Source of the DNA: Pseudomonadota bacterium
GTDB taxonomy: Bacteria > Pseudomonadota > Gammaproteobacteria > Burkholderiales > Burkholderiaceae_C
Assembly (NCBI GenBank): GCA_031119395.1
Contig: JAVHYA010000038.1
Span: forward strand, 1-43,810
DNA length: 43,810 bases
Reading direction: 5' to 3'
The translations under genes were made by a program, and so were the position numbers. The notes under the pieces were generated by a model. The model had not been told where the DNA came from. It saw nothing but the letters and a program-made list of their open reading frames with translations, and ran no database searches. Shown one piece after another: positions 15,678 through 41,297 of this stretch. Numbering within the stretch: position 1 is the first letter of the stretch; the number at the start of each line of letters is the position of its first letter.

Positions 15678-15720
15678 GAACCAGACGCCGGCCGGCGCGC
15701 CGGCCTGGCTGTGGTCAGTT
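15672..15720. terminator. bidirectional hairpin containing both stop codons
   Basis: AACTGA (15672-15677, lipoprotein stop) pairs with TCAGTT (15715-15720, Bug receptor stop on the other strand). Between them a strong inner stem (GCCGGCC with its complement at about 15689-15704) forms. There is no T-run. Confidence 0.45.
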
Positions 15721-16695
15721 CAAGGTGATCTGCGCCTGCCGGGCGACCTCGGTGAACTTGGCGAGGCTTTTCTGCACGGCGCTCTGCGCTTCCGAGGGTG
15801 ACATCGTGCTGGCCACCTGGCCGCCGGCGTCCAGGGCATGCCGCACCTCGGGCGCGGACGAGGCCTGAAGGATCGCGGCGTTCAGCCGGCTCACCACCGC
15901 GTCGGGTACGCCCTTGGGCGCCGCGACGGCGAAGTACTGCGTGGCCTCGTACCCCTTGAGACCGGCCTGGTCCATGGTCGGCACGTCCGGCAGGCTGGGC
16001 AGGCGGAATGGCGTCGTGACCGCATAGGCCTTGAGCTGACCCGACTTGATCTGCGCCAGCACCGGCGTGAGGCCCAGCATGCCGAGCTTGACCTGCCCGC
16101 CCGCCACGTCGACCACGGCCTGGCCGCCCCCCTTGTAGGGCACGTGCAGCATCTTCGTGCCGGCCATCGTGTTGAAGAGTTCGCCGGCCAGGTGCTGTCC
16201 CGTGCCGATGCCCGAGCTCGCGAAGTCCCACTTGTCGGGCTCGGCCTTCATCGCCGCGATCAGCGCCTTGAGGTCGGCCGGCGCCTGGGCGGCACGCCCC
16301 ACGAGCACGATCGGACCCTGCGACAGCATGGCCACCGCCTTGAGTTGCGCACCGATCTGCGGCTGCGGCCGGGCGAAGAGCACCGGCCCGGGCACGGTGA
16401 CCAGCGTGTAGCCGTCCCCGCTGGCCCGGGCGGCCTGCTGCAGCGCCAGCGCGCCGGACGCGCCCGGCACGTTGTCCACCACGATCGACTGGCCGATCTG
16501 TTCGGACACGCTCTTGGCGAAGGCGCGCGTGAGCACGTCCACCGAGCCGCCCGGCACGTAGCCGACGATCCAGGTGATCGGGCGGGCGGTGGGCCAGGGC
16601 TTGTCGGCGTAGGCGGCCGTGCACAGGGGCACTGCGGCGAGCAGGGCGGCGACGCGCAGCAGCGAGCGGCGGGCGAGGGAAGAGGAGCGGGGCAT
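15715..16695 (-). CDS. Bug-family (TctC-like) extracytoplasmic solute receptor
   Basis: The protein has 326 residues. The signal peptide has a twin arginine (ARRSLLRVAALLAAVPLC) and cleaves near AYA/DKPWP. Family marks are PITWIVGYVPGGSVDVLTR (about 39-57), VVDNVPGASGALALQQAAR, GYTLVTVPG and PYKGGGQAVVDVAGGQV. The receptor would bind a carboxylate in the periplasm for a tripartite carrier encoded elsewhere. Two starts are possible. ATG 16725 overlaps the arylsulfatase TGA as ATGA; ATG 16695 was chosen because AAGGAC precedes it and the signal peptide then has normal length. It is co-transcribed with the arylsulfatase, so its ligand may be a product of sulfate ester cleavage. Confidence 0.9.
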   Translation of the reverse strand: MPRSSSLARRSLLRVAALLAAVPLCTAAYADKPWPTARPITWIVGYVPGGSVDVLTRAFAKSVSEQIGQSIVVDNVPGASGALALQQAARASGDGYTLVTVPGPVLFARPQPQIGAQLKAVAMLSQGPIVLVGRAAQAPADLKALIAAMKAEPDKWDFASSGIGTGQHLAGELFNTMAGTKMLHVPYKGGGQAVVDVAGGQVKLGMLGLTPVLAQIKSGQLKAYAVTTPFRLPSLPDVPTMDQAGLKGYEATQYFAVAAPKGVPDAVVSRLNAAILQASSAPEVRHALDAGGQVASTMSPSEAQSAVQKSLAKFTEVARQAQITLN

Positions 16696-19347: not shown

Positions 19348-19714
19348 GGCGGGTCCTTTCGGTCGATGGGGAGGACGACAGCCTTGGGCCGAAGGCCGCC
19401 GCGTCAGCTCAGCATGCCCGAATGCGGCATCGCCAACCCGGACGGACAGGCGCACGCCGCTGAGCTTGCACACGAACTGTAGCGAGGTGACACGGACTCT
19501 CCGGTCCGTCGGCGCGGCGCGAGCTTGTTAGGCAAGAACTATGCAAGCCTTTCGCTCGATCGTCGTGGTCTCTCCGGTTGACGCCAAATCGAACTCAAGA
19601 ATACTATTGGTTCAACCATAGACACGCGATGCGCGAGGAATGGTTCTCGCGCCGAGCAAGCAGCCCCGCGAGCCGACAGCAGTTCGATCGCACCCAAGAA
19701 CGAGGAGACATCCC
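19348..19714. other. intergenic region before the Bug/CoA-transferase operon
   Basis: These 367 bases are less GC-rich than most of the window. They hold a small imperfect hairpin (ACGGAC...GTCCGT, 19492-19509), the promoter and palindrome listed at 19578-19618, and GAGGAGA before the receptor ATG. No gene is seen: an upstream extension of the receptor frame to 19640 lacks a start signal. Confidence 0.6.
19578..19618 (+). promoter_or_regulatory. sigma-70 promoter with palindromic operator
   Basis: TTGACG (19578-19583), an 18-base spacer and TACTAT (19602-19607) form the most canonical promoter in the window. Directly after it comes TGGTT-C-AACCA (19608-19618), a perfect 5+5 palindrome covering the expected transcription start. 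This is the position of a repressor site, and its TGGT...ACCA form resembles GntR/FadR-type operators. No GntR gene lies next to it, so the regulator would be encoded elsewhere. Confidence 0.6.
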
Positions 19715-20683
19715 ATGCACCGATTGACCGCGCGGGCATTTCAAGCCGCACTGCTGTGCAGCATCGGCGCCGCTGCCTGGGCCCAGGAGTGGCCTCAACG
19801 TCCTATCCGCATCGTCGCTCCCTTCGCGCCGGGCGGAGTCACCGACATGGTGGCGCGTGCCGCTGCGGCCAGCATGAGCATCGGTCTGGGCCAGCCCGTC
19901 ATCGTGGAAAACAAACCCGGTGCGCAAGGTGTCGTGGGCACTTCCTTGGTGAAGAACGCGGCACCGGACGGCTACACGATCGTGCTGATGTCATCGTCGG
20001 TCGGGTGCGTCAACCCGGCCATGCGCAAGAGCGTGCCATTCGATATCACCAAGGACTTTGCCCCGATCGGCATGATCGGGGCGGCACCGATGGCGATGGT
20101 GGTGTCCGCGAACGCCACCACCATCACGCTGGACCAGTTCATCGCGCACGCCAAGGCCAACCCGGACAAGGTGAGCTATTCGAGCCCGGGGATCGGCGGG
20201 TCCGCGCACCTGTACGGCGCGGTGATGAATGCCACCCAGGGCTTGAACATGCAGTTGGTGCCCTACCAGGGCGGTGCGCCGGCGCTGCAAGCGGTTCTGG
20301 CCGGCGAGACGCAGATGACCTTCGCCGACCTGGGATCGGCAAGCGGGCAACTGCAGGCAGGAAAGCTGAGAGCCCTGGCTGTCTCCGGCGACGCACGCTG
20401 GCCCGCACTGGCGAACGTCCCGACCTTCGCCGAAGCCGGTTACCCCATCAACCTCGTTGGGTGGGTCGGCCTGATGGCGCCGTCGGGTACGCCGCCCGCA
20501 GTGGTCCGTCGCTTGAATGCCGAGCTGCGCCGGTTCGTCGATGCAGACGACAGCCGCGGGACGCTGCTGACTGCGGGGGTGGCCGCCCGGTCGGGCTCGG
20601 CAGAGCAGATGGCGTCCGCCGTTCGCGAGACCTGCCCCGCCTGGGCGGACGCGGTCCGGAAGGCCAACATCCAGCCCGAGTAG
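19715..20683 (+). CDS. Bug-family (TctC-like) extracytoplasmic solute receptor
   Basis: The protein has 322 residues. The signal peptide runs to about residue 23 (IGAAAWAQ), followed by the family opening WPQRPIRIVAPFAPGGVTD. Further marks are VIVENKPGAQGVVGTSLV, DGYTIVLMSSS, SYSSPGIGGSAHLYG and PYQGGAPALQAVLAGETQ. The ATG at 19715 has GAGGAGA nine bases upstream and a strong promoter behind it. It is the first gene of an operon with the CoA-transferase 77 bases downstream. The bound acid is therefore probably activated to a CoA ester by that enzyme (inference). No TctA/TctB membrane genes are adjacent. Codon use is noticeably less G/C-restricted than in the flanking genes. Confidence 0.92.
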   Translation: MHRLTARAFQAALLCSIGAAAWAQEWPQRPIRIVAPFAPGGVTDMVARAAAASMSIGLGQPVIVENKPGAQGVVGTSLVKNAAPDGYTIVLMSSSVGCVNPAMRKSVPFDITKDFAPIGMIGAAPMAMVVSANATTITLDQFIAHAKANPDKVSYSSPGIGGSAHLYGAVMNATQGLNMQLVPYQGGAPALQAVLAGETQMTFADLGSASGQLQAGKLRALAVSGDARWPALANVPTFAEAGYPINLVGWVGLMAPSGTPPAVVRRLNAELRRFVDADDSRGTLLTAGVAARSGSAEQMASAVRETCPAWADAVRKANIQPE

Positions 20684-31948: not shown

Positions 31949-32701
31949 TTAGAGCGTTTTCTCGATCAGCGGGCCCTTGAACAGCACCGGGCCGGTCGGC
32001 CCGCGTTCCGACGGCACGCCGCCCTTGGGCTCCAGGCTGATCGCCAGGGCAGGCACCGCCTGCAGTTCCGAGGGCGTGGCCGCCAGGTGCAGCGCCTGCT
32101 GCGGCCCGAGCACGCCCAGCGAGCGCGGCGCGCCGCCCGGCGGCAGGGCCCACAGCTGCAGCGAGCGGTCGGCCGCCTCGCGGTAGGGCCCGACGCGCTG
32201 CAGGGTGAGCTGGCGGTTCTTCGGATCGAAGGTGACCAGCATCGAGGCGGCCGAGTGGTCGTCGGACAGCACGGCGACGTACTGCACCTGCGGCGCGCTG
32301 TGCAACTGCTCGCGCAGGCCGACGCCCACCACCACCGCCAGCACGGTGGCCAGCGCACCGGCCGCGGCCGCACCGCGCCACAGGGCCAGGCTGCCCCACC
32401 AGCCGCCGGCTCGGGGTGGGGCCGCTGCCGACGCACTGCGCTGGCGCGCGAGCGCCTCGCGCTGCTGCTCGGCATCGACCAGGTTGCGGATGCGGGTCCA
32501 CACGGCCGGGTCGGGGGCGATCGGCGCTTCGAGCTCGGTCAGGCTGGCGAGCCGGTCCTGCCACAGCAGGGCCGAGGCGCGCACGGCAGCCTGCTCGCGC
32601 GCCAGGGTCTCGAAGCGGCGCCGGGCGCCGCCGCGCAGCGTGCCCAGCGCATGGGCGGCCGAGAGCAGGGCGAGCAGGCGGGGGTGGGCGGCGAGATTCA
32701 T
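31949..32701 (-). CDS. RskA-type anti-sigma factor
   Basis: The protein has 250 residues. The N-terminal cytoplasmic part (about 1-105) has the short anti-sigma helix pattern (LLALLSAAHALGTLRGGARRR). One membrane helix follows (about 109-129) and then a periplasmic RskA-like domain (about 135-245) with DPKNRQLTLQRVG, then RSLQLWALPPGG and ISLEPKGG. It would hold the ECF sigma factor at the membrane until degraded. The ATG at 32701 lies ten bases after the sigma factor's stop, so the two genes are one transcript. Both ends are consistent with an intact protein. Confidence 0.88.
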   Translation of the reverse strand: MNLAAHPRLLALLSAAHALGTLRGGARRRFETLAREQAAVRASALLWQDRLASLTELEAPIAPDPAVWTRIRNLVDAEQQREALARQRSASAAAPPRAGGWWGSLALWRGAAAAGALATVLAVVVGVGLREQLHSAPQVQYVAVLSDDHSAASMLVTFDPKNRQLTLQRVGPYREAADRSLQLWALPPGGAPRSLGVLGPQQALHLAATPSELQAVPALAISLEPKGGVPSERGPTGPVLFKGPLIEKTL

Positions 32702-32711
32702 TGCGGGGCCT

Positions 32712-33287
32712 TCACGCGAGGCGTTCCATGCAGCCGCGCAGCTTCTCGAGCCCGCGGCGGATCCAGGTCTTGACGGTGCCCAGCGGCAACTTGAGCTGCT
32801 CGGCCAGCTCGCCGTGGCTCAGCTCGCGCAGGTAGGCCAGGCTCAGCACCTCGCGCTGCTTGCGCTCGAGCTGTTCCAGGCACTGGTGCAGGGCCCAGGC
32901 CTGCTCGCTGGCGTCGGCCAGGTCCATCGGGCCGGGCGCATCGGCCGGCAGGGTGTCGGCCAGCACCTCGTCGAATTCCTGCGTCAGGCTGGCGCGGTCG
33001 GCCGTCTGGCGGCGCAGCTGGTCGAGGCCGCGGCTGCGCACGATCAGACCCATCCAGGCCAGCGGCGGGCTCAGCGAGGCCCGGTAGTCGGGCGCCGAGC
33101 GCCAGATGGTCAGGAAGGCTTCCTGCAGCACGTCCTCGGCCACCTCGCGCTGCCGGACGATGCGCATCGCCAGCCCGAACAGGCGCGACGAGGTCCTTTC
33201 GTAGAGCTGCTGCAGGGCGGCGGTGTCGCGCCGTCCCACGCGATCGAGCAGGGCGGTGAGTTCGGCATCCGGTGACGACAAGGGCAT
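32712..33287 (-). CDS. ECF RNA polymerase sigma factor (SigK-like)
   Basis: The protein has 191 residues. Region 2 is FGLAMRIVRQREVAEDVLQE, then AFLTIWRSAPDY (about 37-70), and region 4 is LERKQREVLSLAYLRELSHG, then LAEQLKLPLGTVKTWIRRGLEKLR (about 135-183). The pairing with an RskA-type anti-sigma and a DUF3455 protein fits the SigK-like group. The ATG at 33287 has no ribosome site; CAGAAT ends seven bases before it, which could be the -10 of a leaderless transcript. The likely target is the divergent DUF3455 lipoprotein gene and its own operon. Confidence 0.92.
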   Translation of the reverse strand: MPLSSPDAELTALLDRVGRRDTAALQQLYERTSSRLFGLAMRIVRQREVAEDVLQEAFLTIWRSAPDYRASLSPPLAWMGLIVRSRGLDQLRRQTADRASLTQEFDEVLADTLPADAPGPMDLADASEQAWALHQCLEQLERKQREVLSLAYLRELSHGELAEQLKLPLGTVKTWIRRGLEKLRGCMERLA

Positions 33288-33489
33288 CGGCGGATTCTGG
33301 CGGTAAACGGCGCATCCCTTCCATACGGCCGTACGCGCTCGGCGGATTCGCCGACGCCGCGATGCTGCAAAAACTGACTGGAAGCTGAATCCGAACCGCG
33401 CAGCCTCGCGTACCGGAAGGGCAGGCAGGCGTTGTGCGCCCGTCCGCGACCCCCCATTCAACCTCCGTTCTCAGAAAAAGGAACCAGCC

Positions 33490-35622: not shown

Positions 35623-35634
35623 AGCGCATCAGGC
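35617..35634. terminator. bidirectional hairpin containing both stop codons
   Basis: GCCTGA (35617-35622), loop AGCGCA, TCAGGC (35629-35634): a perfect 6-bp stem whose arms include both facing TGA codons. No T-run. Confidence 0.45.
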
Positions 35635-37044
35635 GCGCCGCAGCGCCTGGCGCAATGCGCGCGCGAAACGCGGCGCTGCCACCGCGCCGACGTTGAAGCG
35701 GGCCCAGCGCGAGGGCGTCGAATCGACGGTGAAGATGCGTCCCGGCGCCAGCACGATGTTCTGCGCCAGCAGTTCCTGCGCGAACGCCATCGAGTCCTCC
35801 ACGCCCGGCAGCGCGGCCCACAGGTAGAGCGACTGCGCGTTGCGCGCGTAGATCTCGGCGCCCACCGAGTCGAAGAGGCGCGTCGCCCCGGCGGTGGCCT
35901 CCTCCAGGCGGGCGCGCAGCCGCGTGAGGTGGCGCTGGTAGTGGCCCTCGGCGAGCATCACATCCACCGTGCGCTCGCAGTACTCGGAGCTGCTCACGTG
36001 CAGCAGCGCCTTGAGGTCGGCCAGGTCGCTGGCGAGGTCGGCGCCGCAGGCGATGAAGCCCACGCGCAGCGCGGCCGAGAAGGACTTGGAGAAGCTGCCG
36101 ATGTAGATCGTGCGCTCCAGCTGGTCCAGCGCCGCCAGGCGCGTCGAGGCCATCGGCTTGAAGTCGGCCAGCGGATCGTCCTCGACGATCAGCAGGTTGT
36201 ACTTCTGCGCCAGCTGGAGCACCTTGAAGGCCTTGGCGGCCGACAGGTCCGAGCCGGTCGGGTTGTGCGCCACCGACTGCGTGAAGAACAGGCGCGGCCG
36301 GTGCACGATCAGCAACTGCTCCAGCGCCTCCAGGTCGGGCCCGTCGGGGCCGCGCGGCACGCCGAACACCTCGGCGCTCGCCACCTTGAGCTTGCCGAAC
36401 AGCGGGTAGTAGCCGGGGTCGTCCACCAGCACCTTGCCGCCGGGCGGCACGAAGTAGCGGATGACCAGGTCCATCGCCTCGTTCGCGCCCTGCGTGAGCA
36501 CCACCTGCGCGGGCTCGGCGCCGACGCCGATGTCGGCCAGCTTGCGCACGATGTGCTCGCGCAGCGGCGCATAGCCGTAGCGGCTGCCGTAGCGGAAGAG
36601 GGCGCCCAGGCCGGTGCGAACGACCTTGTGGTGGAACCTGTCCAGGCGCACGTCGGCCAGCCACTCGACGGGCGGATAGCCGTCGCCCACGGCCAGCGCG
36701 TCGGGTCGCGTCTTGAGCTGTTCGCGCATGAGCCACACGATGTCCATCGCGCGGCCGAGGCTGCCGCGCTCCTCCTCGGCCGGCGCCGGCGGCGCGGCGC
36801 GTTCCAGCACGTAGTAGCCGGAGCCGCGCCGCGGCTCGACCAGCCCGCGCGCCACCAGCAGCTCGAAGGCGGCGACCACCGTGTTCTTCGCATAGCGATG
36901 CAGCTCGGCCAGCTCGCGCAGGGACGGCAGCTTGTCGCCCGCCCGGTACGCGCCGTCGGCGATCTGCCGCTCGATGGTGTCGGCCAACTGGACGGTGCGC
37001 GACACCGGTCGGGCCGCGAGGGCAGGGCGTGACGCTTCTGTCAT
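35629..37044 (-). CDS. MocR-family regulator (GntR domain fused to PLP aminotransferase fold)
   Basis: The protein has 471 residues. The GntR winged helix (about 15-80) reads QLADTIERQIADGAYRAGDK, then LPSLRELAE and RGLVEPRRGSGYYV. The aminotransferase fold I domain (about 110-470) has NPTGSDLS (substrate loop), VEDDPLADF (PLP-ring Asp) and GSFSKSFS with the PLP-binding Lys320, plus a final Arg in SRWARFNVG. The ATG at 37044 was taken over the in-frame GTG at 37053. It is divergent from the HMG-CoA reductase operon; an inverted repeat at 37106-37129 lies between the two starts. By MocR precedent it probably activates that operon and represses itself. Control of an acid-degradation operon by this class would be unusual, since its ligands are usually amino compounds. 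Confidence 0.92.
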   Translation of the reverse strand: MTEASRPALAARPVSRTVQLADTIERQIADGAYRAGDKLPSLRELAELHRYAKNTVVAAFELLVARGLVEPRRGSGYYVLERAAPPAPAEEERGSLGRAMDIVWLMREQLKTRPDALAVGDGYPPVEWLADVRLDRFHHKVVRTGLGALFRYGSRYGYAPLREHIVRKLADIGVGAEPAQVVLTQGANEAMDLVIRYFVPPGGKVLVDDPGYYPLFGKLKVASAEVFGVPRGPDGPDLEALEQLLIVHRPRLFFTQSVAHNPTGSDLSAAKAFKVLQLAQKYNLLIVEDDPLADFKPMASTRLAALDQLERTIYIGSFSKSFSAALRVGFIACGADLASDLADLKALLHVSSSEYCERTVDVMLAEGHYQRHLTRLRARLEEATAGATRLFDSVGAEIYARNAQSLYLWAALPGVEDSMAFAQELLAQNIVLAPGRIFTVDSTPSRWARFNVGAVAAPRFARALRQALRRA

Positions 37045-37105
37045 GGTTTTCACTATGACACAGCAGCCCGTGTCCGCGGCCGATGGGTGGAACTGTCCCT
37101 GCCAA

Positions 37106-37129
37106 CTGTACCTATGAGGACTGGTACAG
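37106..37129. promoter_or_regulatory. inverted repeat, probable MocR operator
   Basis: CTGTACC (37106-37112), ten bases, GGTACAG (37123-37129), a perfect 7+7 dyad. AACTGTCCC at 37091 and AACTGTACC at 37104 form a direct repeat with a 13-base step, and paired direct/inverted half-sites are usual for MocR regulators. A -10-like TACAGT lies at 37136-37141, pointing toward the HMG-CoA reductase gene, so a protein bound at the repeat would sit at the -35 position. Confidence 0.6.
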
Positions 37130-37183
37130 GGCGCCTACAGTCGCGGCCTTCCATCACCGATAGCCCGAGAGAGAGTGACTGCC

Positions 37184-38467
<1,284 letters not shown>

Positions 38468-38471
38468 GCGC

Positions 38472-38506
38472 GCGGCCGGCAGGCTGCCGCGCAGCGTGCC
38501 GGCCGC
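38472..38506 (+). promoter_or_regulatory. strong intra-operon hairpin after mvaA
   Basis: GCGGCCGGCA (38472-38481) and TGCCGGCCGC (38497-38506) form a perfect 10-bp stem with a 15-base loop, beginning four bases after the mvaA stop. There is no T-run, so it is more likely to set RNA stability or partial read-through between the enzyme and the transport genes than to end transcription outright. Confidence 0.5.
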
Positions 38507-38557
38507 ATCCCCGGGACCCGACGAGGGCGGGCCCTTCCAACCACCGGAGACAGCACC

Positions 38558-39007
38558 ATGAGAAGTGACTCTGCATCGCCGCCTCGGCAACTCGTCGAGG
38601 TCTGGGGCGACACCGCCGACACGCGGCACCTGGCCTGGGCCATCGTGATCGGCATCGGCATCAGCCTGACCGGCTTCCTGATCGCCAGCCGCATCCTCGT
38701 CGCGCACGTGAGCAGCCCCGAGCTGGCGCGTGCCTACGCCATGCTCGCCGGCCTGGCCGGCTGCGTGCTGTCGGGCGTGATCTGCGCCTTCATCTTCCAG
38801 CCCAAGCGCGACGTGGTCGAAGGCGCCGCCAGCGACCCGGCGTGGCGCGAGGAAGTCGTCGCCCAGCTGGCCGAGGAACACGGCGGCCTGGGCTCGATGG
38901 ACGACCTGCCGCCCGTGGTGGCGCGCGAGATGAAGGAGCTGGAGATCTACGAGCTCTTCGCGCAGCACGACCCCGCCCACGCCACGAACAGGAAAACCGT
39001 CCCATGA
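38558..39007 (+). CDS. two-TM accessory protein of the TctA-like permease
   Basis: The protein has 149 residues. Two membrane helices (about 25-46 and 62-82) are followed by an acidic soluble tail (about 88-149: EEVVAQLAEEHGG, EMKELEIYELFAQHDP). GGAGA precedes the ATG. Its TGA overlaps the permease ATG (ATGA), so the two are made together. Position and layout recall the small TctB subunit of tripartite carriers, but it has two rather than four helices and no sequence resemblance I can name. It is probably a partner subunit of the transporter. Confidence 0.8.
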   Translation: MRSDSASPPRQLVEVWGDTADTRHLAWAIVIGIGISLTGFLIASRILVAHVSSPELARAYAMLAGLAGCVLSGVICAFIFQPKRDVVEGAASDPAWREEVVAQLAEEHGGLGSMDDLPPVVAREMKELEIYELFAQHDPAHATNRKTVP

Positions 39008-40389
39008 GCGCCGAACTCCTCCAACAGATCTGGGTCGCCGGGGCCATGGGCCTGGTCGGTGCCATCGTCTTCGCCGCCATCGGCCTCGTGTCGGGCACCG
39101 ACGAGACCACCACGCTCGCGCCGCTGACGCTGCTCGTGGTGCTGCTGGGCGTGCCCGCCGCGGGCGTGTTCACCTTCTTCCTGGCCGGCGCCGTGGCCAA
39201 GCACATGACGCACGCGGTGCCCACGGCGCTGCTGGGCATCCCGGGCGACACGCTGGCCACGCCGCTGCTGCAGGACGCCAACGCGCTGCGCAAGCTGGGC
39301 GTGCCGCACATCGCGCTGCGCAAGATGATCTCGGGCGCCATCGTCGCGGCCTTCGTCGCCGTGCCGCTGGCCGTGCTGTTCGCGGTGATGCTCGCGCCCT
39401 TCGGGCCCACCATCACCAAGGCGGCGCCGTGGATCTTCCTGGCCGCGGCCGTGCTGATCGCGTACTTCTCGCCCGGGCGCTGGGCCTCGGTGGCGCTGCT
39501 GCTGCCCTTCGTGGTGCTCATCATCGCGCTGCAGACGCTGACGGCGAAGTACAACGTCAAGCTCAGCGTGAGCTACTTCCTGGGCATCGCCATCGGCCCG
39601 CTGGTGGCGGATCTGTTCTCGGTCATCTCGCCGGCCGACCGCGGCCGCATGAAGCGCGACCAGCCGCGCACCTTCCAGCTCGCGCCGGACGTCAAGGGCT
39701 GGTCGGGCTACTTCCCCAACCCGCTGAAGGTGCTGGACCGCAAGCAGACGCAGTGGACGCTGGCGACCGCGACCATCTCGAGCGCGACCTTCGTGTTCAG
39801 CCCGGTCGCGATGACCGTGGTGCTGGGCGAACTGGTGGGCTCGCGCATCAAGCATGCCTACCACCGCCTCACCACGGTGCTGGCCGCGCGCAACGGCGTG
39901 ACCGAGGCGACCTACATCGCCGAGGCGCTGATCCCGCTGATCGCCTTCGGCCTGCCGCTCAGCCCGGTGGCCGCGGGGCCGGCCGCGCCGCTGTTCAACG
40001 CGCCGCCGCGCTTCACGGTGGATGCGGCCACGGGCCAGACGCACAACCTGCACAACCTGATGAACCACTGGGAGTTCCTCGGCTACGGCATGCTGGCGGT
40101 GCTGCTGGCGGCGGTGGTGTCGTACCCCTTCGCGATGAACTTCGCGCGCCGCGCGGCGCTCTTCGTGTCGCGCAAGGTGAGCCACGAGGCCATCATCGCC
40201 ACCTTCATCGGCCTGATCTTCGTCATCAGCGTGTGGGAGGGGCAGTTCCTCGGCCTGCTGGTCATCATGACCATGGGCCTGGTCGGCGGGCTGCTGTCGC
40301 GCATCCTGGGCTTCAACACCGGCGTGCAGTTCATGGGCTACTACACGGCCGTGCTGTCGGTGCCGGCGCTGCTGAAGATCTTCGGATGA
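39004..40389 (+). CDS. TctA-like permease, candidate mevalonate/HMG-acid transporter
   Basis: The protein has 461 residues and 10-12 membrane helices. Two re-entrant-type Gly/Pro motifs recall TctA: TALLGIPGDTLATPLLQDAN (about 76-95) in the first half and a LIAFGLPLSPVAAGPAAPLF stretch (about 313-332) in the second. The end, GLVGGLLSRILGFNTGVQF, is like the TctA C-terminus. The overall likeness is distant, so family membership is tentative. The gene overlaps both neighbours by ATGA and is enclosed between HMG-CoA reductase and lyase genes. Its substrate is therefore probably mevalonate or a similar 3-hydroxy-3-methyl acid (inference). No Bug receptor is encoded with it. Confidence 0.8.
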   Translation: MSAELLQQIWVAGAMGLVGAIVFAAIGLVSGTDETTTLAPLTLLVVLLGVPAAGVFTFFLAGAVAKHMTHAVPTALLGIPGDTLATPLLQDANALRKLGVPHIALRKMISGAIVAAFVAVPLAVLFAVMLAPFGPTITKAAPWIFLAAAVLIAYFSPGRWASVALLLPFVVLIIALQTLTAKYNVKLSVSYFLGIAIGPLVADLFSVISPADRGRMKRDQPRTFQLAPDVKGWSGYFPNPLKVLDRKQTQWTLATATISSATFVFSPVAMTVVLGELVGSRIKHAYHRLTTVLAARNGVTEATYIAEALIPLIAFGLPLSPVAAGPAAPLFNAPPRFTVDAATGQTHNLHNLMNHWEFLGYGMLAVLLAAVVSYPFAMNFARRAALFVSRKVSHEAIIATFIGLIFVISVWEGQFLGLLVIMTMGLVGGLLSRILGFNTGVQFMGYYTAVLSVPALLKIFG

Positions 40390-41297
40390 GCCTGGCGGTG
40401 AACGAACGCGTCAAGGTCGTCGAGGTCGGCCCGCGCGACGGGCTGCAGAACGAGAAGCGGCCGGTCGACGTGGCGACCCGGGTGGCGCTGATCGAGCGGC
40501 TCGTGGCCGCCGGCGTCACCCACATCGAGGCGGCGTCCTTCGTGTCGCCCAAGTGGGTGCCGCAGATGGCCGGCAGCGCCGAGCTCATGGCCGCGCTGCC
40601 GCGCCCGGCCGGCGTGCACTACAGCGCGCTCACGCCCAACCTGCAGGGCCTGGAGGCCGCGCTGGCCGCCGGCTGCGACGAGGTCGCGGTGTTCGGCGCC
40701 GCGTCCGAGGCCTTTTCGCAGAAGAACATCAACTGCTCCGTCGCCGAGAGCCTGGAGCGCTTCCGCAGCGTGGCCGAGGCGGCGCTGGCGGCCGGCGTGC
40801 GCGTGCGCGGCTATGTGTCGTGCGTGCTGGGCTGCCCCTACGAGGGCGCGGTGGCGCCGGCGCAGGTGGCGCGCGTGGCGGTGCAGCTGCGCGAGATGGG
40901 CTGCCACGAGATCTCGCTGGGCGACACCATCGGTCGCGGCACGCCCGACGCCGCGCGCCGCATGCTCGAGGCCTGCCTGCGGCACATCCCGGCGTCGGCG
41001 CTGGCGGGCCACTACCACGACACCTACGGCATGGCGATCGCCAACATCGCCGCCTCGCTCGAGATGGGGCTGCGCACCTTCGACAGTTCGGTCTCGGGCC
41101 TGGGCGGCTGTCCCTACGCCGCCGGCGCGTCGGGCAACGTCGCCACCGAGGACGTCGTGTACCTGCTGCACGGCATGGGCCACGAGACGGGCATCGACCT
41201 GCCCCGACTGGCCGAGGCGGGCGCCTTCATCTGCGCCGCGCTGGGCCGCGACAGCGCGTCGCGCGTCGCCCGGGCGCTGGCTGCCGCCTGCGCCTGA
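40386..41297 (+). CDS. mvaB: hydroxymethylglutaryl-CoA lyase, EC 4.1.3.4
   Basis: The protein has 303 residues, the usual length. A TIM-barrel start VVEVGPRDGLQNEK carries the metal-binding Asp18, GHYHDTYGMA carries the His pair, and the active-site signature SVSGLGGCPYAAGASGN contains the catalytic Cys. It splits HMG-CoA into acetyl-CoA and acetoacetate. The ATG overlaps the permease stop (ATGA). In P. mevalonii the same two enzymes form mvaAB; here two membrane genes lie between them. HMG-CoA lyase also works in leucine breakdown, but no leucine-pathway genes (ivd, mcc, liu) are present here, which favours mevalonate. Confidence 0.95.
   Translation: MSLAVNERVKVVEVGPRDGLQNEKRPVDVATRVALIERLVAAGVTHIEAASFVSPKWVPQMAGSAELMAALPRPAGVHYSALTPNLQGLEAALAAGCDEVAVFGAASEAFSQKNINCSVAESLERFRSVAEAALAAGVRVRGYVSCVLGCPYEGAVAPAQVARVAVQLREMGCHEISLGDTIGRGTPDAARRMLEACLRHIPASALAGHYHDTYGMAIANIAASLEMGLRTFDSSVSGLGGCPYAAGASGNVATEDVVYLLHGMGHETGIDLPRLAEAGAFICAALGRDSASRVARALAAACA

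What the first reader, a model, noticed from the sequence alone, without database searches (positions are those of the whole stretch)
35629..41297. MocR-controlled mevalonate degradation operon with a built-in, receptor-less TctA-like transporter
Seen: a MocR regulator divergent from class II HMG-CoA reductase, a two-TM protein, a distant TctA-like permease and HMG-CoA lyase; the last three genes overlap by ATGA. Known: Pseudomonas mevalonii mvaA/mvaB convert mevalonate to acetyl-CoA and acetoacetate, and the reductase here keeps all four catalytic residues and the Asp linked to NAD preference. Inferred: the two membrane genes import mevalonate or a close relative, and a MocR protein senses it. 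The transporter type, the lack of a solute receptor and MocR control of a hydroxy-acid pathway would each be new as far as I know.
Basis: partly seen in the sequence, partly recalled or inferred. Interest (0 to 1): 0.78.

Follow-up and report, generated by a model that had tools for sequence, protein, structure and literature searches.

The report
Mevalonate-eating operon with two-part importer
A bacterium related to Xenophilus carries a portable gene set for using mevalonate (the building block of sterols and terpenes) as food, apparently with an unusual two-part membrane importer and a vitamin-B6-type regulator that are found together in distantly related bacteria.

Summary
MocR (35629-37053, -) is divergent from degradative HMG-CoA reductase mvaA, followed by a two-helix membrane protein, a TctA-family permease and HMG-CoA lyase, with ATGA overlaps. 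The permease passes Pfam TctA (78.5 v 28.9 bits) but is far from the genome's other TctA. Linkage is strong: 7 of 7 permease-bearing genomes from whole-genome sampling, 79 of 80 GTDB loci held (the 80th is cut by its contig) and 6 of 6 plasmid-collection records have MocR, mvaA, two-helix gene and permease together. Of 18 mvaA loci without the permease, 7 have a TRAP system. The permease stays 73-76% identical even where its mvaA partner is only 53-55%. A three-box operator, unique in the genome, lies between MocR and mvaA. The lyase is optional. Best reading: mevalonate import by two membrane proteins, oxidation to HMG-CoA, cleavage, under MocR control. Import, receptor independence and inducer are inferred. 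Receptor-less TctA is not new in kind (archaea), and 103 TctC matches in this genome leave a receptor in trans possible. MocR control of an amine-free pathway and the two-helix partner look new.

The parts
35629..37053 (-). MocR-type regulator (GntR DNA-binding domain + aminotransferase-like domain), divergent from mvaA
   Evidence: Pfam GntR and Aminotran_1_2; in 15 of 15 genomes chosen for having a linked MocR, the best match to it is the mvaA-linked copy; K323, N264, D293, R330, R452 invariant in 99 rows aligned, window included; 4 of 102 loci dropped for no or partial match
37092..37129 (+). Predicted MocR operator: direct repeat ACTGTCCC (37092-37099) / CTGTACCT (37106-37113) and inverted box GGTACAG (37123-37129)
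   Evidence: Inverted pair in 68 of 79 relatives' MocR-mvaA regions v 0.01 in dinucleotide shuffles; one match in the whole genome, control pattern 0. Pattern written after seeing the regions; not found in this form in the Azorhizobium, Roseomonas, Lichenicola and Rhizobium copies
37175..38467 (+). mvaA, class II NAD-type degradative HMG-CoA reductase (start perhaps ATG 37184)
   Evidence: TIGR00532 424.7 bits; aligned to structures 1qax and 6dio
38558..39007 (+). Two-helix membrane protein, proposed second subunit of the importer
   Evidence: Two hydrophobic stretches; AlphaFold helices 22-50 and 54-79, mean pLDDT 81.7; beside the permease in 79 of 80 loci and 6 of 6 plasmid records; invariant W16, D18, T19, G65, L66, G68, P82, K83, R84 in 31 aligned
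39004..40389 (+). TctA-family permease, proposed mevalonate importer core
   Evidence: PF01970 78.5 bits over 4-413 of 423; next to mvaA in every locus where the contig allowed a look
40386..41297 (+). mvaB, HMG-CoA lyase
   Evidence: NCBIfam PRK05692 469.2 bits; matches solved HMG-CoA lyases 2ftp and 2cw6

Best explanation
A mevalonate-utilisation operon. The two-helix protein and the TctA-like permease together form a secondary importer for mevalonate (inferred). MvaA oxidises mevalonate with CoA and NAD to HMG-CoA (family knowledge; residues intact) and MvaB cleaves that to acetyl-CoA and acetoacetate (family knowledge). The divergent MocR protein binds the three-box site in front of mvaA and switches the operon in response to mevalonate or a product of it (inferred). 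It is a portable cassette in which MocR, mvaA, two-helix gene and permease are the fixed core; the lyase is added locally or supplied from elsewhere in the genome.
For: Permease found in 7 distinct genomes by whole-genome sampling (5 of 250 at E 1e-10; 4 of 299 at 1e-10, 3 shared; 2 of 244 at 1e-20, 1 shared), and in 7 of 7 it lies beside mvaA, the two-helix gene and MocR. In the GTDB scan 79 of the 80 loci held have all four; the 80th contig begins 65 bases before the permease; 3 of the 80 are the same records as sampled genomes. 6 of 6 plasmid-collection records too (two of them 3.2-3.5 Mb Burkholderia replicons), including conjugative Rhizobium etli pRsp8C3a, and Roseomonas and Lichenicola plasmids with transposase genes close by. 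Transporter replacement: of 25 mvaA loci, 7 have the TctA-like system, 7 a TRAP system, 4 others a branched-chain-type ABC receptor within 7 kb, 7 none of these; none has both TctA-like and TRAP. The permease is 73-76% identical to the window's in Azorhizobium, Roseomonas and Lichenicola although their mvaA is only 53-55% identical; on an mvaA tree of 42 chosen rows the TctA label needs at least 3 changes on well supported branches. In G298 the permease is only 37% identical, yet a two-helix gene, MocR and mvaA are all there. MocR is adjacent in 17 of the 25 mvaA loci. Operator.
Against: No transport, growth or binding data. The lyase is linked in only 17 of 80 loci, although in 5 permease-bearing genomes without a linked copy a 55-64% identical lyase lies elsewhere. 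187 of the 267 loci found were not shown, and most of the 80 are Burkholderiales. 8 of 25 mvaA loci lack MocR. 11 of 79 regions, and the alphaproteobacterial copies, lack the exact operator form. Known MocR inducers react through a primary amine (PMC8739950, passages), which mevalonate lacks. The permease model is poor (mean pLDDT 63.5) and matched no solved fold.
Confidence: 0.8

Rival explanations
1. The importer is a normal tripartite system whose receptor is an orphan TctC (Bug) protein encoded elsewhere, so it is receptor-less only on the map.
For: 103 TctC matches v 7 TctA matches in this genome; two TctC genes lie in this window at about 15.7-16.6 kb and 19.6-20.7 kb; 20 of 80 loci have a TctC-like gene somewhere in the flanks, 8 of them within 1 kb; orphan TctC proteins are common in Bordetella and relatives (PMC5812351, passages).
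Against: All 8 TctC-like genes within 1 kb are on the opposite strand; the nearest same-strand one is 1.9 kb away in one Cupriavidus, behind other genes (six TctC queries at E 1e-6). The partner is a two-helix protein without detectable similarity to TctB (shallow profiles, low power).
Confidence: 0.3
2. The two membrane proteins move a related compound (mevalonolactone, hydroxymethylglutarate) or export a product such as acetoacetate rather than import mevalonate.
For: Substrate cannot be read from sequence; the TctA family is broad (PMC5812351, passages).
Against: The constant enzyme partner is mvaA, whose substrate is mevalonate, while mvaB is optional; the slot is filled elsewhere by TRAP systems with DctP receptors, which are importers by family knowledge.
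Confidence: 0.15
3. The permease is a general carboxylate transporter that only happens to sit beside mvaA in one lineage.
For: Most of the 80 loci are Burkholderiales and inherit one arrangement; 187 loci were not seen.
Against: Linkage recurs in two gammaproteobacterial genomes, in Azorhizobium and on alphaproteobacterial plasmids, with two deeply split mvaA groups; no unlinked copy in the 7 genomes sampled at the E-values used.
Confidence: 0.03
4. mvaA here works in the biosynthetic direction for isoprenoids.
For: Class II reductases of Gram-positive bacteria do so (family knowledge).
Against: TIGR00532 is the degradative NAD-type model (424.7 bits) and the NADP model TIGR00533 scores 49.1 against a cut-off of 441.8; the partner genes are a lyase and a permease. 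Whether the genome has other mevalonate-pathway genes was not tested.
Confidence: 0.02

Closest known systems
Pseudomonas mevalonii mvaAB mevalonate catabolic operon
   Same: Same two enzymes (operon recalled); reductase aligned end to end with all named residues kept
   Different: Here with a MocR regulator and a built-in two-gene transporter; the P. mevalonii regulator MvaT is of a different kind (recalled)
TctABC tripartite tricarboxylate transporters (TTT)
   Same: Permease passes PF01970 over nearly its whole length; a small membrane gene precedes it
   Different: No TctC in the operon; partner has 2 helices rather than the 4-5 given for TctB in PMC5812351 (passages); permease far from five own-genome TctA
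Stand-alone archaeal TctA (arCOG04469)
   Same: TctA-family permease without TctB/TctC (PMC5898192 and PMC5812351, passages)
   Different: Those are mostly stand-alone genes of unknown substrate; this one has a partner protein and a pathway context
MocR regulators GabR and EnuR/EhuR
   Same: Architecture; PLP lysine and carboxylate arginine positions kept; operator of direct plus inverted boxes as described for proteobacterial GabR (PMC5320631, passage)
   Different: Those sense compounds with a primary amine (PMC8739950, passages); mevalonate has none
TRAP-linked MocR/mvaA clusters (L137, L140, L163-L165)
   Same: MocR 43-53% identical, divergent from mvaA 71-76% identical
   Different: Receptor-dependent DctPQM transporter in the slot

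Membership tests
TctA permease family (PF01970) | Score over the curated cut-off across the domain | tested here: met
   78.5 v 28.9 bits, profile 4-413 of 423; G298 homologue 92.8
TctABC tripartite transporter | TctC receptor encoded with the permease | tested here: not met
   None in the window operon; no same-strand TctC within 1.9 kb of the permease in the 80 loci
TctABC tripartite transporter | 4-5-helix TctB partner | tested here: not met
   2 helices; no Pfam hit over cut-off; no profile match to five own-genome TctB-position proteins, a weak test
TctABC tripartite transporter | Receptor-dependent uptake | not testable with these tools
   Needs uptake assay; 103 TctC matches in the genome
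Degradative class II HMG-CoA reductase | TIGR00532 over cut-off and catalytic E/K/D/H | tested here: met
HMG-CoA lyase | PRK05692 over cut-off | tested here: met
   469.2 v 246 bits
MocR subfamily of GntR regulators | GntR domain plus aminotransferase fold with PLP lysine | tested here: met
MocR subfamily of GntR regulators | Membership of a named NCBIfam MocR equivalog (PdxR, EhuR, GabR, rhizopine MocR and others) | tested here: not met
   Best is PdxR, 222.9 bits against a cut-off of 320
MocR subfamily of GntR regulators | PLP-dependent control of the neighbouring genes by a small inducer | not testable with these tools
   Needs binding and expression assays

The most novel reading that the evidence does not exclude
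The two-helix protein and the TctA-like permease form a self-sufficient, receptor-independent mevalonate importer, a two-part branch of the TctA family with a known substrate, and its MocR regulator uses its PLP pocket to sense a hydroxy acid that has no amine, so it cannot work by the external-aldimine switch known for GabR and EnuR.
Probability: 0.35. Interest if true: 0.75.

Novelty: new variant of a known kind. Interest (0 to 1): 0.62.

Why it matters
The listings of four paper searches showed no paper that names a bacterial mevalonate importer by its title; a 2025 paper says bacterial import systems exist and evolved yeast JEN1 for the job (PMC12405511, passages). This cassette gives a candidate. 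It also offers a bacterial case with a guessable substrate for the open question whether TctA proteins can work without a receptor (PMC5812351, passages), and a MocR regulator whose likely inducer lacks the amine that the accepted mechanism needs.

Tried and rejected
AlphaFold of the permease was too poor (mean pLDDT 63.5) for a fold comparison; Foldseek gave nothing at E 0.001 or below. Sequence searches of the PDB with the permease, its profile and the two-helix protein gave nothing meaningful. Homology of the two-helix protein to TctB: no signal, but both profiles are shallow and the five TctB were picked by position and hydrophobicity. Profile comparison with five own-genome TctA gave only a weak N-terminal match; membership rests on Pfam. 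Sigma-70 promoter scan found none. The TRAP receptor of L140 has only distant PDB relatives, so it did not name the substrate. A permease search in 289 alphaproteobacterial genomes found none, although it occurs in Azorhizobium and on alphaproteobacterial plasmids, so it is rare there. In one search four of five TctC queries were unchecked longest ORFs; one search repeats the count with six TctC proteins and gives the same 20 of 80. The 'ABC' label of L158 in the tree was by eye and is not supported by tblastn. The operator pattern was written after looking at the regions, so its shuffles are descriptive.
Full report
WHAT IS THERE. MocR 35629-37053 (-) carries GntR and aminotransferase domains. 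mvaA 37175-38467 is a degradative, NAD-type class II HMG-CoA reductase: TIGR00532 424.7 bits against a cut-off of 259.95, and residues E85, K269, D285, H383 and D148 align to the P. mevalonii catalytic set and the NAD-linked aspartate (the P. mevalonii numbers and roles are recalled; that NAD-type enzymes keep an aspartate at the cofactor site is in passages of PMC12292504). The 149-residue protein at 38558-39007 has two membrane helices and no family over a cut-off. The permease 39004-40389 passes Pfam TctA (78.5 bits, cut-off 28.9). mvaB 40386-41297 is an HMG-CoA lyase. The six other TctA matches of this genome score 198.6 to 533.1 bits, so this one is remote. The nearest named genomes are Xenophilus and relatives, with up to 100% permease identity.

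LINKAGE. Whole-genome sampling found the permease in 5 of 250 genomes of the order (query P0004, E 1e-10), 4 of 299 of the phylum (profile A2, E 1e-10; 3 already seen), 2 of 244 of a gammaproteobacterial order (profile A3, E 1e-20; 1 already seen) and 0 of 289 alphaproteobacteria (A3, E 1e-20): 7 distinct genomes. In 7 of 7 it lies beside mvaA, MocR and the two-helix gene. A scan of GTDB contigs found 267 relatives, of which the best 80 are held: 79 of 80 have MocR, mvaA and the two-helix gene, and the 80th contig starts 65 bases upstream of the permease. These 80 are mostly Burkholderiales plus one Azorhizobium, include several close strains and 3 records already in the samples, so they are not independent; the 187 others were not seen. 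In the plasmid collection, 6 of 72,556 records hold the permease and the same 6 the two-helix gene; two of the six are 3.2-3.5 Mb Burkholderia replicons. MocR and mvaA are in 6 of 6 and mvaB in 4 of 6. The four annotated copies name the genes 'PLP-dependent aminotransferase family protein', 'hydroxymethylglutaryl-CoA reductase, degradative', 'hypothetical protein', 'tripartite tricarboxylate transporter permease' and 'hydroxymethylglutaryl-CoA lyase'. Roseomonas and Lichenicola keep the window's gene order, with transposase genes nearby; Rhizobium etli has mvaB on the MocR side.

MORE THAN INHERITED NEIGHBOURHOOD. The permease of Azorhizobium, Roseomonas and Lichenicola is 73-76% identical to the window's, but their mvaA only 53-55%, and these mvaA fall in a different, strongly separated group. 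On an mvaA tree of 42 rows that I chose (24 labelled TctA), the TctA label needs 7 changes, at least 3 on starred branches; shuffled labels need 13.9 on average, so the label is also clustered, as shared descent would give (quick tree, some long branches, so counts are rough). In G298 the permease is only 37% identical and the two-helix protein has shrunk to 79 residues, losing the C-terminal tail but keeping the W-D-T and P-K-R positions; the pair is still beside mvaA and MocR.

TRANSPORTER SWAP. In 25 mvaA loci (24 over the TIGR00532 cut-off, plus G615) 7 have the TctA-like pair, 7 a TRAP system, 4 others a branched-chain-type ABC receptor within 7 kb, and 7 none of these by tblastn; none has both TctA-like and TRAP. 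Details that blur this: two TRAP loci (L163, L165) also hold a weak ABC-receptor match further off; two of the 'none' loci (L026, L031) have a weak TctC match 3.4 kb away; G298 has a separate TctC 6.7 kb away; L158 looks like an ABC receptor by eye only; L135 and L160 are cut by contig ends. TRAP identity was confirmed by Pfam for L137 and L140 only. The slot next to mvaA is thus filled by different importer types, which is the main reason to call the two membrane genes the importer.

REGULATOR. MocR is adjacent in 17 of the 25 loci: with 7 of 7 TctA-like, 5 of 7 TRAP, 2 of 4 ABC and 3 of 7 'none' loci. In 15 of 15 genomes, chosen because they have a linked MocR, the best match to this MocR is the mvaA-linked copy, though the margin is small in some (326.2 v 311.5 bits in G303). 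The inverted site CTGTACCT-N-GGTACAG (one or two letters loose) is in 68 of 79 intergenic regions and twice elsewhere in the same 80 loci, and its strict form once in the whole genome of the window. The direct-repeat box is in 66 of 80 regions, window included. Against: 11 of 79 lack the exact pair; Azorhizobium and the Roseomonas, Lichenicola and Rhizobium copies show at most single or related boxes such as GGGACAG/CTGTCCC. Among six more distant loci, L134 and L140 have paired boxes, L139 has them in the other order, L137 and L138 one box, L135 none. In 99 aligned MocRs (98 of 102 loci plus the window) K323 (PLP lysine position), N264, D293, R330 and R452 are invariant; GabR's Lys312, Asp279, Arg319 and Arg430 bind PLP and the GABA carboxylate (PMC6917764, passages); the correspondence is from the alignment to an aminotransferase and from spacing, not from a GabR alignment. 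So the pocket should bind PLP and a carboxylate. A passage of PMC8739950 says the known switch needs a primary amine on the inducer. Mevalonate has none. Either the inducer is another compound or the mechanism differs. Activator or repressor cannot be told.

LYASE. A closely related mvaB (61% or more) is linked in 17 of 80 loci; 7 more have a 41-43% homologue on the opposite strand downstream. In G133, G204, G098, G138 (55-59%) and G298 (64%), which lack a linked copy, a lyase lies elsewhere, and the window's genome has a second one, 57%; these are probably leucine-degradation lyases (inference).

RECEPTOR. No TctC is in the operon. 20 of 80 loci have a TctC-like gene in the flanks; the 8 within 1 kb of the permease are all on the opposite strand, and the nearest same-strand one is 1.9 kb away in L092 behind other genes. 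In Bordetella L045 a complete TctABC-like set lies 3' of the permease on the opposite strand (by eye). The genome has 103 TctC matches and two lie in this window, so a receptor in trans is open. Review passages (PMC5812351) report archaeal TctA without TctB/TctC and rare bacterial orphans, without experimental proof; PMC5898192 (passages) says most archaeal members stand alone. PMC10133366 (passages) finds an archaeal TctA-like protein essential for natural transformation.

LITERATURE. Searches for mevalonate with TTT, TRAP/solute-binding, P. mevalonii, pathway enzymes and transporter, sole-carbon-source terms, mevalonate transport terms and MocR listed no paper that appears, by title and start of abstract, to describe such a transporter or regulator; several listings were capped. 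The main text of PMC5320631 holds no 'hydroxymethylglutaryl', 'HMG' or 'mva'; its abstract mentions 86 groups, and its supplement could not be read. Only open-licence papers are held. Mevalonate uptake as an activity in a Pseudomonas was reported in the 1980s (recalled).

VERDICT. A real, mobile mevalonate-degradation cassette with a likely dedicated importer that is a divergent member of the TctA family plus a new two-helix partner. The catabolic role is close to certain, import of mevalonate very likely, receptor independence and the inducer unproven.

Noticed in passing
window 19640-20683 (+) and 15715-16624 (-): Two TctC (Bug) receptor genes in the same window, among 103 matches in the genome: candidates for a receptor acting in trans.
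   Followed up: partly
L098 about 580-605 and L107 about 590-615: A second copy of the operator-like site, about 5 kb from the mva operon in two Paraburkholderia, in front of a gene that looks like a histidine kinase by eye: perhaps a promoter left by a rearrangement.
   Followed up: partly
L050, L059, L061, L048, L051, L053, L058 (downstream of the permease, opposite strand): Achromobacter cluster of TctC, in most a CoA-transferase-like gene, and a 41-43% HMG-CoA-lyase-like gene: possibly a related acyl-CoA lyase pathway.
   Followed up: no
L136, L138, L139, L140, L162, L028: mvaA linked to a CoA-transferase III, in all but L140 with an enoyl-CoA-hydratase-like gene: possibly a different route onward from HMG-CoA, through methylglutaconyl-CoA.
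   Followed up: no
window 31949-33461 (-): RskA-type anti-sigma factor and sigma factor pair a few genes from the operon.
   Followed up: no
G138 (L028 and L029): One genome holds two mvaA loci, one with the TctA-like system and MocR, one with CoA-transferase and an ABC receptor; the latter mvaA is the closest to the window's among the 42 rows of the tree (91%).
   Followed up: no
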